Assembly (NCBI RefSeq): GCF_022430525.1
Contig: NZ_CP092519.1
Location: forward strand, 808,454-872,453
Length of the DNA: 64,000 nt
From: Cetobacterium somerae
Lineage (GTDB): Bacteria; Fusobacteriota; Fusobacteriia; Fusobacteriales; Fusobacteriaceae
Reading direction: 5' to 3'
The notes beneath the pieces are model-generated. The model saw only the letters and a list, made by a program, of their open reading frames with translations, searched no databases and had not been told where the DNA came from. Below are positions 1-64,000 of this stretch, one piece after another (positions within the stretch are counted from its first letter, which is position 1; every line of letters begins with the position of its first letter). Both the position numbers and the translations under genes were made by a program.

Positions 1-1797
1 TAAGTTTTCTTCTAAATCCATTTTTGTTAAAACATAGCCGTTTATCTCTTTTTCATCAAACTTAGGAAGCTTTTTAACAATAGAAACGTTAGTTGTAACA
101 GTGCCTGCAACTCCTATAATTTTAAAGTTATTACCTTCAAACTTAATTAATTCGTTAAAAAATCCTTTTAAATAGTTACGAGCAGATAAAAGAGTTTCCT
201 CATTATAGTTTTCATCTGAAAAAAACATCTCTGTTAATTTAACAACTCCAATGGGGAAACTTTTGATATAGTCAATTCCATTGTAATCACCAATGGTAAT
301 TTCACTACTACCGCCTCCTACATCAATAGTTGCTATTTTTTCTCTATAGATGTTGCTATTTCCATTAAAACTTAATTTCGCTTCAATTTCTCCAGGAATA
401 ACTAAAGTATTTATATCAAATTCATTTTTTATTCCTTGAACAAACATACTACCATTGCTAGCCTCTCTTGTAGCAGCAGTAGCAAATGCAATCAGCTCAG
501 TTACGCCCATAGAATCAGCTTTTTCTTTAAATCTTTTAATAATATAGTATGTTTTTTCAATAGATTCTTTTGAAAGAACACCAGTTTGATTAAGGTTTTT
601 TCCCAATCTAGAAACTTCTAAATCCTTATATAATGGTGTAATAATCTCTATTTTATTATCAGTTTTTTCAATCTCTGCAATAAAAAGTCTACAAGAGTTA
701 GTTCCTATATCTATAACACCTTTTAAAATTCTATTTTTAAAAGAGTGGTTAACTTCAGAGATAATCTCTTTAGAAATTGGCATATTTTCAAGAGTTCCAT
801 TTTTATCGATAATAAATTTAATTTTATCATGGGTATTTTTTTTATCTTTTTTCATAACATTTATTAAAGTTTCTTCCTCTATATATATAGGAGTGGGATC
901 AATTTTATAAAGACTGAAAAGTTCTTTGATAGAATTAATGTATTCATCTGTAGAAAAACCTAAAAACTTAGAGATTTGCATTTCAAAAAGTATACCTTTA
1001 GCTACTCCTTCGCCGTGAGAGATATGTTGATAATCAAAAAGAGTTTCTAAAGCATGACCATAAGTATGACCTAGATTTAAAAAGGCACGATCACCTTTCT
1101 CAAATTCATCTTTTTCAACAAACTCTTTTTTTATTTTACAAGATTCATAAATCATTTCAATTAAAACTTCAGGTTTTAACTTTAAAATATCTCTATATGA
1201 TTCAATTAAGAAGTTAAAATAACTTTTATCTTTTGCAATGATACTATGTTTAATAACCTCTCCCATACCAGACCTAAATTGGCATAAAGGTAGAGTTTTT
1301 AAAAAATTAATATCTATAATAACTCCAATAGGTTGTTTAAAAGAACCGATTAAGTTTTTTCCAAGAGAGTGATTAATGGCAACCTTACCTCCAATACTAG
1401 CATCAACTTGAGCTAATAAAGAAGTGGGAACTTGTAAAAAATCAAGACCTCTCATGAAAGTAGAAGCAATAAATCCTCCTAAATCGCAAACAACTCCACC
1501 TCCAACACATATGATTAAAGAGTTTCTAGAAAAATTATTCTCTATTAAAAATGAAAAAATTTCCATAGAAGTTTCCATATTCTTATATACTTCACCGTCT
1601 TCAATTTTATAGACATAGGTTTTTTTCTTTGGAAGATTACTTAAAATCTTTTGACCATAAAGTTCACCTATAGTTTTATTTGTAAGTAGTAGTATTTTGT
1701 CATAATTTTCAGTAAAATCATTAAGTCTATCTATTGTATTTTGTCCAATAAAAATGTCGTATGAATTTATAGAAGTCTTCATAACTAAATTTTTCAT
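1..1797 (-). CDS. aroB-ppx: Fused 3-dehydroquinate synthase / Ppx-GppA phosphatase (partial, C-terminus beyond window)
   Basis: One open frame of 599 codons runs from ATG at 1797 off the left edge with no stop. Residues 1 to about 345 are 3-dehydroquinate synthase (shikimate pathway, DAHP to 3-dehydroquinate). The NAD-binding GGGVVCDLGG lies near 99-108, and the metal ligands sit in GEVIKHS (about 179-185), NLGHTYGHALE (about 241-251) and H261. From about residue 360 an exopolyphosphatase/GppA domain begins with GVIDIGTNSCR and continues with FATAATREASNG (about 438-449) and DVGGGSSE (about 492-499), so both active sites look intact. I followed the frame through the junction (about 720-840) and it is continuous. 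A GGAGACC ribosome site at 1804-1810 supports the start. A fusion of these two enzymes is unusual. Cytoplasmic. Confidence 0.9.
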   Translation of the reverse strand, partial: MKNLVMKTSINSYDIFIGQNTIDRLNDFTENYDKILLLTNKTIGELYGQKILSNLPKKKTYVYKIEDGEVYKNMETSMEIFSFLIENNFSRNSLIICVGGGVVCDLGGFIASTFMRGLDFLQVPTSLLAQVDASIGGKVAINHSLGKNLIGSFKQPIGVIIDINFLKTLPLCQFRSGMGEVIKHSIIAKDKSYFNFLIESYRDILKLKPEVLIEMIYESCKIKKEFVEKDEFEKGDRAFLNLGHTYGHALETLFDYQHISHGEGVAKGILFEMQISKFLGFSTDEYINSIKELFSLYKIDPTPIYIEEETLINVMKKDKKNTHDKIKFIIDKNGTLENMPISKEIISEVNHSFKNRILKGVIDIGTNSCRLFIAEIEKTDNKIEIITPLYKDLEVSRLGKNLNQTGVLSKESIEKTYYIIKRFKEKADSMGVTELIAFATAATREASNGSMFVQGIKNEFDINTLVIPGEIEAKLSFNGNSNIYREKIATIDVGGGSSEITIGDYNGIDYIKSFPIGVVKLTEMFFSDENYNEETLLSARNYLKGFFNELIKFEGNNFKIIGVAGTVTTNVSIVKKLPKFDEKEINGYVLTKMDLEENL

Positions 1798-3636: not shown

Positions 3637-4473
3637 ATGCAAGGTTTTAAAACGTTTATATTAATGCTAGTAATGACCTTATTGCTATTATTTATAGGAG
3701 GAGCTATTGGTGGAAAAACAGGAATGACAATAGCTTTAGTTTTAGCAGGAGTAATGAATTTTGTATCATATTGGTTTAGTGATAAAATTGTACTATCAAT
3801 GTATGGAGCGCAAGAGATACCAGAAAACAATAAAGTTTATTGGATAACAAAGAAGTTAGCTGACAATGCAGGATTACCTATGCCAAAAGTATATATGATA
3901 AATCAAAGTCAGCCAAATGCATTTGCAACAGGAAGAAATCCTCATCATGCAGCAGTTGCAGTAACAAGAGGATTGGTTGAACTTATGGACGATAATGAGT
4001 TAGCAGGAGTAATAGGACATGAATTAGGACACGTTTCTCATAGAGATATACTAATTCAAAGTGTGGCAGCAACTTTAGCAGGAGCTATTGCATATATGGC
4101 TAATATGGCAAAGTGGGCAGCTATTTTTGGTGGGGGAAGAAGAGATGAGGATGATAATCATGGTGGAATTTTTGGGTTATTGGCAATAAGTATTTTTGCA
4201 CCTTTAGCAGCAATGTTGGTTCAAATGGCTATATCTAGAAGTAGAGAGTATAAGGCTGATAATTTTGGTGGGAAAATTTGTGGTCATCCAAGATATTTAG
4301 CAAATGCTTTAAGAAAATTAGAGTCATATGCTACAAGAATTCCCATGGATGCAGCACCAGCTACAGAAAATATGTTTATTGTTTCACCTTTGGCAGGAAG
4401 TAAGATGGCAAATTTATTTAGTACTCATCCAAGTACTGCTGATAGAATAAGAAGATTAGAGGAAATGGAATAA
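3637..4473 (+). CDS. htpX: HtpX-type membrane zinc metalloprotease (M48)
   Basis: A 278-residue membrane protease of the HtpX/M48 family, which degrades misfolded membrane proteins with its active site facing the cytoplasm. Two hydrophobic segments lie at about 5-25 and 28-52. The zinc motif HELGH is at 138-142, followed by another hydrophobic region (about 150-205) and the third zinc-ligand region SREYKADNFGG. The length fits the family. CTGGAGG precedes the ATG at 3637. It appears to stand alone, between a terminator-like hairpin and a separate promoter. Confidence 0.93.
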   Translation: MQGFKTFILMLVMTLLLLFIGGAIGGKTGMTIALVLAGVMNFVSYWFSDKIVLSMYGAQEIPENNKVYWITKKLADNAGLPMPKVYMINQSQPNAFATGRNPHHAAVAVTRGLVELMDDNELAGVIGHELGHVSHRDILIQSVAATLAGAIAYMANMAKWAAIFGGGRRDEDDNHGGIFGLLAISIFAPLAAMLVQMAISRSREYKADNFGGKICGHPRYLANALRKLESYATRIPMDAAPATENMFIVSPLAGSKMANLFSTHPSTADRIRRLEEME

Positions 4474-62164: not shown

Positions 62165-64000
62165 ATGAAAGAAAAGAAAAAAGAGTTTTATAATAGGGAC
62201 TTAAGTTGGTTAGAGTTTAATAGTAGAGTAGTATATGAATCAAAATATGAAAGAAACCCACTTCTAGAAAGAGCTATGTTTTTAGCAATAGCATCAACAA
62301 ATTTAGATGAATTTTTCATGGTTAGAATACCTAAAAAAAGAGAAAAAAAAGAGAGAGAAAAAATTTATAATTCTATAAAAAAAATGGTGGATAATATCTA
62401 CAACGAGTATAATCTATATTTAAAAGATTTGAAAAAAGAGACAGATATTGAAATAAAAGAGTATTTAAATTTAAGTAGAAAAGAGAAAGAGTTAGCAGAT
62501 AATTATTTTAATAGATTGATTCAGCCGATATTAGAAATAATTGAGATTGATTCATTTCATCCAATACCAAGAATAGCTTCTGGAAATTTAGTTTTATTAG
62601 GAATGATTGAAAAGAAAAAAACAAAAGAAAAAAAAGTTATTATGATTGAGTTAAGAGGAGAGTTTGAAAGAATCATAAAGCTTGAAGAGGATAAAAATCA
62701 TTTTATTTTAATAGAGGAATTAATAAAAGGGAATTTGAGTGTTCAACTAGAGGATTTTGAAATAAAAGAGATTGGAATTTTTAGATTAACAAGAGATGAA
62801 GGAATTGAGATTTTAGAGGATTCAAAAGTAAATGCAGATATTATAAAAGAAGTTGAAGATCAATTAGAGGAGAGGGAGTGGGGCGAAGTTATTAGGGTTG
62901 AATATGATAAAAAATTATCTAAAGAAATGAAGGATTTTATAACAAAAAACTTTAGTCTTTCAACGACAGAGATATATGAAATATCAGGACCTATAAACTT
63001 AGATTTTTTATGGACAATAGAAGGATTAAAGGGATATGAAAAATATAAGTATGAGCCACTAAATGAAAAGTTTTTAAAAAAGATGAAGGGAGAAAATATA
63101 TTTGAAACTTTAAAGAAAAAAGATAGATTGTTACTACATCCTTATGAATCTTTTGAAGCAGTTACAGAGCTAATTGATACAGCTGCAGATGATCCAGATG
63201 TACTTGGTATAAAACAAACTTTATATAGAGTAAAACATCATGATTCACCAATAATTGATGCATTAGAAAAAGCTTGTAAAAAAGGAAAACAAGTTACGGT
63301 ATTAGTCGAAGCTAAAGCTAGATTTGATGAGGGGGATAATATAGAGTGGGCTAAAAAATTAGAAAGAGTAGGGTGTCATGTCATTTATGGAATAAAAGAT
63401 TTAAAAGTTCATGGAAAAACTCTTTTAATTTTAAGAAAAGAAAATGAAAAAATAAGAAGATATGTTCAGTTAGGAACTGGAAACTACTATAAAGCACCTT
63501 ATGTTGATATCTCTTTATTTACAGCTGATGAAGGAATTGGTGAAGATATTTCCAATCTATTTTCTAATTTGATAAGTCCCCAAGAAAGAAAAAATTGGAA
63601 AGAGATTGGAGTGGGACCACAAGAGTTAGAAGACCGATTTAAAAAACTTGTAGATAGAGAGAGAAGTAACGCTTTAAAAGGAAAAAAAGCAAGAATTATT
63701 GCTAAAATGAATGGATTAACAGATGAAAGTATGATAGATAAACTTTATGATGCTTCAAATGCAGGAGTAAAAATAGTTTTAATTGTTAGAGGAGCATGCT
63801 GTTTATTACCTGGAGTTAAAAATATGAGTGAAAATATAGAGGTTTACAGTATAGTTGGAAGATTTTTAGAGCACAATAGAGTTTATATTTTTGAAAATAA
63901 TGGAGAGAAAGAATACTTTTTATCAAGTGCAGATTGGATGACTAGAAATTTAGAGCGAAGAGTGGAGCTTATGTTTCCTGTAAAAAATAGTAAAAATAGA
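62165..64000 (+). CDS. ppk1: Polyphosphate kinase 1 (partial, 3' end beyond window)
   Basis: A reading frame of 612 codons open to the right edge. It starts FYNRDLSWLEFNSRVVYES (about 8-26), the PPK1 N-terminal signature, followed by LDEFFMVRIP. The autophosphorylated histidine is H416 in LKVHGKTLL and the second active-site histidine is H570 in FLEHNRVYIFENNG. LSSADWMTRN follows. The enzyme polymerises the ATP gamma-phosphate into polyphosphate at the membrane. About 70-80 C-terminal residues should lie beyond the window. AGGAGG precedes the ATG. Confidence 0.95.
   Translation, partial: MKEKKKEFYNRDLSWLEFNSRVVYESKYERNPLLERAMFLAIASTNLDEFFMVRIPKKREKKEREKIYNSIKKMVDNIYNEYNLYLKDLKKETDIEIKEYLNLSRKEKELADNYFNRLIQPILEIIEIDSFHPIPRIASGNLVLLGMIEKKKTKEKKVIMIELRGEFERIIKLEEDKNHFILIEELIKGNLSVQLEDFEIKEIGIFRLTRDEGIEILEDSKVNADIIKEVEDQLEEREWGEVIRVEYDKKLSKEMKDFITKNFSLSTTEIYEISGPINLDFLWTIEGLKGYEKYKYEPLNEKFLKKMKGENIFETLKKKDRLLLHPYESFEAVTELIDTAADDPDVLGIKQTLYRVKHHDSPIIDALEKACKKGKQVTVLVEAKARFDEGDNIEWAKKLERVGCHVIYGIKDLKVHGKTLLILRKENEKIRRYVQLGTGNYYKAPYVDISLFTADEGIGEDISNLFSNLISPQERKNWKEIGVGPQELEDRFKKLVDRERSNALKGKKARIIAKMNGLTDESMIDKLYDASNAGVKIVLIVRGACCLLPGVKNMSENIEVYSIVGRFLEHNRVYIFENNGEKEYFLSSADWMTRNLERRVELMFPVKNSKNR

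What the first reader, a model, noticed from the sequence alone, without database searches (positions are those of the whole stretch)
1..1797. AroB fused in frame to a Ppx/GppA phosphatase
The sequence shows one uninterrupted frame joining a complete 3-dehydroquinate synthase to an exopolyphosphatase/GppA domain with intact ATP-binding and catalytic motifs. DHQ synthase releases phosphate and works in aromatic synthesis, while Ppx/GppA acts on polyphosphate or pppGpp, so linking them is unexpected and could tie aromatic synthesis to phosphate or stringent signalling. I do not recall a described function for this fusion.
Basis: partly seen in the sequence, partly recalled or inferred. Interest (0 to 1): 0.65.

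Follow-up and report, generated by a model that had tools for sequence, protein, structure and literature searches.

The report
AroB–Ppx fusion enzyme of Fusobacteria
Many fusobacteria make the aromatic-synthesis enzyme AroB as one chain with a Ppx/GppA-type phosphatase, and in one lineage the AroB half has lost its active site yet is still preserved by selection, so it seems to serve as something other than an enzyme.

Summary
The fusion is real. The gene lies on the minus strand and runs off the window: 659 aa, of which the window holds 1-599. DHQ synthase is complete and over its curated cut-off; a short Ppx/GppA domain follows.

The fusion is in 40 of 98 Fusobacteriota genomes and in a Fusobacterium vincentii record. 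Fused AroB domains form one clade; Ppx-only versions are scattered among the fused ones, partly in the same chromosomal slot. This fits one fusion and several losses of the AroB half.

In 37 of 40 fusions the DHQ-synthase residues are intact; in 39 of 40 genomes it is the only AroB, so it most likely makes DHQ.

Genus g12 (3 of 3 genomes) lost the shikimate pathway, and its fused AroB lost 10 of 15 catalytic positions. That half still evolves under purifying selection equal to Ppx (dN/dS 0.164 versus 0.166, one pair).

A link to stringent signalling is not shown. Polyphosphate looks less likely as substrate: 23 of 40 lack PPK1 and PPK2. No paper on the fusion was found.

The parts
1..1797 (-). 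aroB::ppx fusion gene, residues 1-599 of 659; the last 60 codons and the stop lie beyond the window's left edge (L003:9772-11751)
778..1797 (-). 3-dehydroquinate synthase (AroB) domain, residues 1-340
   Evidence: Pfam PF01761 and PF24621; TIGR01357 over cut-off; solved DHQ synthases 5hvn, 3zok, 3okf align
1384..1407 (-). VDASIGGK active-site motif (residues 131-138), replaced by INSGTNG(T/I) in genus g12
1054..1077 (-). NLGHTYGH (residues 241-248), zinc-ligand region; lost in genus g12
727..777 (-). junction, residues 341-357; an ATG with a Shine-Dalgarno-like site in the 36 codons around it in only 1 of 40 fused genes
1..726 (-). short Ppx/GppA domain, residues 358-599 (continues to 659 outside the window)
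   Evidence: Pfam PF02541; aligns with 2j4r, 1t6c and other PPX structures
694..711 (-). DIGTNS phosphate loop 1 (residues 363-368)
   Evidence: D363, G365, N367 in 40 of 40
379..393 (-). GEIEA (residues 469-473): conserved Glu472 aligns with the last E of PEQEG in A. aeolicus PPX/GPPA
   Evidence: Glu472 in 40 of 40; alignment; catalytic role of that Glu (E119) is recalled
307..324 (-). DVGGGS phosphate loop 2 (residues 492-497)
   Evidence: D492, G494-G496, S497 in 40 of 40
3637..4473 (+). HtpX-like protease gene, divergent neighbour that marks the conserved slot of the fusion or Ppx-only gene in g1, g2, g4, g5, g12
   Evidence: the name HtpX is recalled from the sequence, no family search was run on it

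Best explanation
The gene makes one bifunctional polypeptide: a catalytically competent DHQ synthase (in this genome the only one, hence the shikimate-pathway enzyme) joined by a short linker to a short-type Ppx/GppA phosphohydrolase. SHOWN by sequence: the join, intact residues in both halves, a single clade of fused AroB, and repeated Ppx-only states nested among the fused. INFERRED: the fusion arose once, probably when ppx joined the 3' end of aroB in an aroK-aroB context (aroK still lies directly upstream in four of the genomes examined), and AroB was later cut away where another aroB served the pathway. INFERRED mechanism: the dimeric DHQ-synthase fold acts as an oligomerising platform that holds and perhaps tunes the Ppx domain, whose job is phosphoanhydride hydrolysis of an alarmone or nucleotide-type substrate rather than polyP. 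In genus g12, which lost the shikimate pathway, only this platform role is left, so the catalytic residues went while the fold stayed under purifying selection.
For: DHQ synthase: TIGR01357 over cut-off; 15 catalytic-site positions intact in 37 of 37 non-g12 fusions (residue numbering recalled); only AroB match under E 1e-10 in 39 of 40 fused genomes (the exception is G038); aroA and aroC present in 35 of 40 (tallied); aroK 8-40 nt upstream of the fusion in G062, G044, G039 and G045, with DAHP synthase before it in G062. Ppx: motif residues in 40 of 40. Single origin: fused AroB (41 rows) one clade, SH-aLRT 96, with all 13 unfused AroB outside. Loss: fused/Ppx-only label needs 6 changes on the careful Ppx tree, 5-6 over bootstraps, at least 4 forced by strong branches; same HtpX slot with 66-255 bp gaps. 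g12: no aroC, aroA only as a sub-cut-off MurA-like match, no DAHP synthase (the one PF00793 protein is KDO8P synthase in 3 of 3), shikimate kinase absent in 2 of 3 and borderline in the third; AroB half 65% identical between G050 and G051 with dN/dS 0.164 against Ppx 0.166, where a neutral simulation gives about 23% identity and 6 stops.
Against: The platform role is inferred; no structure of the fusion was predicted or solved. Ppx-only versions in g4 (4 genomes read), g5, g14, g10 and g25 show that the Ppx domain can work without AroB. g12 rests on three genomes, and the numerical dN/dS on one unsaturated pair (the two pairs with G052 have saturated dS). G050 and G052 still have an aroE-family gene, which in G052 lies in a TRAP-transporter cluster that looks catabolic (inference). 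Short PPX-GppA proteins of M. tuberculosis show polyP or ATPase but no pppGpp hydrolase activity (PMC3411833), so the substrate stays open.
Confidence: 0.5

Rival explanations
The g12 AroB half persists because the Ppx domain became structurally dependent on its N-terminal neighbour for folding.
For: AroB half lost repeatedly without loss of Ppx; the same locus shows another casual fusion, where Ppx-only genes of g4 are joined at the C-terminus to a small downstream ORF that is separate in fused g4 relatives.
Against: The join is kept over 13 genera with a short linker of fairly constant length outside g12, longer than a neutral join would be expected to last (inference).
Confidence: 0.28
2. 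True metabolic coupling: DHQ synthase state (NAD+, DAHP, released phosphate) regulates alarmone or polyP hydrolysis, tying aromatic supply to the stringent response.
For: RSH present over cut-off in 37 of 40 fused genomes; both active sites intact in 37 of 40.
Against: Fusion kept in g12 without DAHP synthase or any working DHQ-synthase site; Ppx-only states frequent; RSH also present in many genomes with no such Ppx, such as most of family f4.
Confidence: 0.12
3. The Ppx half is the cell's polyphosphatase.
For: Family name; own genome has PPK1 (two copies) and PPK2.
Against: 23 of 40 fused genomes lack PPK1 and PPK2. A second, long Ppx tracks PPK1 instead: 13 of 16 PPK1+ and 0 of 24 PPK1- fused genomes (Fisher p 4.7e-8, not corrected for relatedness; weaker and shorter second matches not counted), and in the own genome it lies close to PPK1.
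Confidence: 0.1

Closest known systems
3-dehydroquinate synthase AroB (TIGR01357; PF01761 + PF24621)
   Same: full domain, score over the equivalog cut-off, all catalytic positions in 37 of 40 fusions
   Different: carries a C-terminal Ppx/GppA domain; in genus g12 the active site is gone
Short Ppx/GppA proteins (A. aeolicus PPX/GPPA 1t6c/2j4r; M. tuberculosis Rv0496 and Rv1026)
   Same: about 300-aa form without the C-terminal domains, with DIGTNS, Glu and DxGGGS motifs
   Different: fused behind AroB; TIGR03706 only below its cut-off, substrate unknown
AroK-AroB bifunctional proteins (NF010627, NF010556) and AROM
   Same: AroB in a multi-enzyme chain
   Different: partner is not a shikimate-pathway enzyme; scores far below those models' cut-offs
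IspH-RPS1 fusions, also in Fusobacterium nucleatum (PMC4746011, passages seen)
   Same: biosynthetic enzyme joined to a protein outside its pathway in fusobacteria, stringent link proposed
   Different: unrelated proteins

Membership tests
3-dehydroquinate synthase (AroB) | score over the curated equivalog cut-off | tested here: met
   TIGR01357 337.3 against 305; not met by the three g12 fusions: 165, 135 and 162 bits
3-dehydroquinate synthase (AroB) | zinc ligands and catalytic residues | tested here: met
   15 positions intact in 37 of 40 fusions including the window's; 10 of 15 lost in g12 (H287 in 2 of 3) (numbering recalled)
3-dehydroquinate synthase (AroB) | pathway context: rest of the shikimate pathway in the genome | tested here: met
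   own genome has aroA, aroC, aroE, shikimate kinase and two PF00793 proteins
Ppx/GppA phosphatase superfamily (PF02541) | family score and active-site motifs | tested here: met
   161 bits against 27; motifs 40 of 40
Exopolyphosphatase, short form (TIGR03706) | score over the curated cut-off | tested here: not met
   199.8 against 307
GppA pppGpp phosphohydrolase (NF008260) | score over cut-off and C-terminal domain | tested here: not met
   81.7 against 624; no Ppx-GppA_III match in the fusion
pppGpp or polyP hydrolase by activity | hydrolysis measured | not testable with these tools
   needs purified protein

The most novel reading that the evidence does not exclude
DHQ synthase has become a non-catalytic regulatory or scaffold module (a pseudo-DHQ-synthase) for a Ppx/GppA phosphohydrolase: in genus g12 the fold is kept under purifying selection after the whole pathway and the active site were lost. 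This would imply that the AroB half already had a non-enzymatic role in the ancestral fusion, so also in the window's genome and in the Fusobacterium nucleatum group.
Probability: 0.4. Interest if true: 0.72.

Novelty: new variant of a known kind. Interest (0 to 1): 0.55.

Why it matters
Enzyme-to-scaffold conversion is usually inferred from single proteins. Here one family gives three outcomes side by side: a working enzyme, AroB cleanly removed, and AroB dead but preserved. That makes the question of whether a fused enzyme domain has a second role directly testable. The fusion also occurs in Fusobacterium vincentii, a human-associated species, and it warns that automatic annotation as AroB would be wrong in g12.

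Tried and rejected
Sequencing artefact or frameshift: rejected by 40 genomes with the open join. Hidden internal start making a free Ppx: ATG with a Shine-Dalgarno-like site in 1 of 40, and 13 of 40 have no ATG/GTG/TTG in the 36 codons examined. AroB relic in front of Ppx-only genes of g4: the extra length is C-terminal and matches a small downstream ORF, not AroB. Loss of the catalytic Ppx Glu (GEIEA for GEEEA): rejected, the variable middle position is Q in A. aeolicus and Glu472 is 40 of 40. A promoter and terminator scan at the gene found no more promoter-like sites than chance (11 against a mean of 13.4).

Literature: searches (listings seen); passages of PMC9026213, PMC4746011 and PMC3411833 and the abstract of PMC3411833. 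No description of the fusion was found; the library is open-access PMC only.

Rows dropped before counts: 9 near-identical fused and 4 Ppx-only rows left out of the careful tree, though all are; only 13 unfused AroB (those fetched); the second-Ppx count leaves out matches with short or broken frames or E above 1e-10 and further weak matches (G018, G002, G004:C18, G010:C3, and the second extra match of G053). aroA of G011 is counted as present from two fragments below the cut-off. G063 (f3) has a Ppx end at a contig edge, so its state is unknown.

Full report
WHAT IS THERE. Window 1-1797, minus strand, is the first 599 codons of a 659-codon gene. Residues 1-340 are a complete DHQ synthase and residues 358-659 a short Ppx/GppA domain. 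The search of the own assembly found one other Ppx-type match: a 504-aa protein next to an HD-domain protein and close to a PPK1 gene. No other AroB match was found in it.

DISTRIBUTION. Of 98 Fusobacteriota genomes held, 40 carry the fusion in one frame without internal stops: 39 of 61 in the window's family f1, in 12 of its 14 genus codes, and the single genome of f2. None of the 33 genomes of family f4 has it. One f3 genome is cut by a contig edge. A Fusobacterium vincentii record carries the fusion too, 664 aa and 72% identical to a g3 member. That g1 may be Cetobacterium is a guess from genome size, not a result.

HISTORY. The fused AroB domains (41 rows) form one clade (SH-aLRT 96, quick method) and the 13 unfused fusobacterial AroB proteins included lie outside. 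On the Ppx tree the Ppx-only rows of g4 (part), g5, g14, g10 and g25 lie among fused rows; the label needs 6 changes, 5-6 across bootstraps, at least 4 forced by strong branches. The tree alone cannot tell gain from loss; the single AroB clade points to one fusion and several losses. At the slot between a divergent HtpX-like gene and the selD-selA-selB genes, g1, g2 and g4 have the fusion, g12 has it beside HtpX in the two genomes that can be read, and part of g4 and g5 have Ppx alone; gaps to HtpX are 66-255 bp either way. In G062, G044, G039 and G045 a shikimate kinase ends 8-40 nt before the fusion, and G062 has DAHP synthase before that.

DHQ SYNTHASE IN THE FUSION. Fifteen positions that correspond to catalytic and metal-binding residues of Aspergillus DHQ synthase (numbering recalled; identity with solved bacterial enzymes seen) are intact in all 37 non-g12 fusions (the position for K250 is residue 223). 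In 39 of 40 fused genomes there is no second AroB match under E 1e-10 (G038 is the exception). aroA and aroC were both found in 35 of 40 (the five others are the three g12 genomes, G045 at 70% and G008 at 67% completeness). The fused copy must then supply DHQ synthase, which is inference from gene content.

THE PSEUDO-AROB OF GENUS G12. G050, G051 and G052 (99, 92 and 97% complete) have no aroC, no aroA over cut-off, only KDO8P synthase in place of DAHP synthase, and no shikimate kinase apart from a borderline 22-bit match in G052. Their AroB half lost R130, D146, K152, K250, R264, N268, H271, H275 and K356 in 3 of 3 and H287 in 2 of 3, and keeps E194, K197 and K161; the Ppx motifs are untouched. 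Its linker is about 26 residues longer. The half is not decaying: G050 and G051 share 65% of AroB residues and 72% of Ppx residues, with dN/dS 0.164 and 0.166; neutral drift at one substitution per site would leave about 23% identity and about six stops. The frame is also open in G052, where gene G+C is 28% against 54-56% in the other two. On the stem the AroB half changed fast (branch 1.59), and between G052 and the others it is less alike than Ppx (50-53% against 66-70%), so constraint is real but looser than on Ppx over the longer span. G050 and G052 keep an aroE-family gene; in G052 it sits in a TRAP-transporter cluster (DctP), so it looks catabolic, by inference.

SUBSTRATE OF THE PPX HALF. 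PPK1 is over cut-off in 16 and PPK2 in 14 of the 40 fused genomes; 23 have neither, and RSH is present in 21 of those 23. A second, long Ppx follows PPK1 (13 of 16 against 0 of 24). This makes polyP a less likely main substrate and an alarmone or nucleotide more likely. However, the fusion's Ppx half is below the cut-offs of both the exopolyphosphatase and GppA models, and tested short PPX-GppA proteins differ in activity (PMC3411833).

VERDICT. The most interesting point, not in the finding, is the preserved dead AroB of g12, which argues for a non-catalytic role of that half.

Noticed in passing
L003:9685-9723 (just left of the window, minus strand): selD downstream of the fusion starts at an ATG behind AAGGAGG and has an in-frame TGA after 12 codons (MKLLLDRCSIGG-TGA-ASKIG), so SelD is itself probably a selenoprotein; selA and selB follow (gene names recalled from sequence).
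   Followed up: partly
window 62186-64000: a second PPK1-family gene (G000:C1:870639-872591) begins here and runs off the window.
   Followed up: no
L045:6907-8097, L046:6931-8136, L047:6214-7404, L048:3461-4690: Ppx-only genes of part of g4 are fused at their C-terminus to an 86-99 aa protein without a Pfam match that is a separate downstream ORF in fused g4 relatives.
   Followed up: partly
L078:8210-8479, L079:7754-8023, L083:8223-8492, L049:5736-6008, L050:7431-7700, L055:6611-6871: an acylphosphatase-like gene directly follows the fusion or the Ppx-only gene in g2, g13, g5, g14 (two tested by profile; the others by eye).
   Followed up: partly
L184:1754-5416: in G002 the EPSP synthase (AroA) is the first third of a 1220-aa open frame whose remaining 800 aa match no Pfam family.
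   Followed up: partly
L042, L043, L044: genus code g12 holds loci of very different G+C, 29% (G052) and 51-52% (G050, G051).
   Followed up: no
L073 (G038:C1:2178000-2191000): G038 has the fusion and a second, distantly related stand-alone AroB; a DAHP-synthase-type match with one in-frame TGA lies nearby.
   Followed up: no
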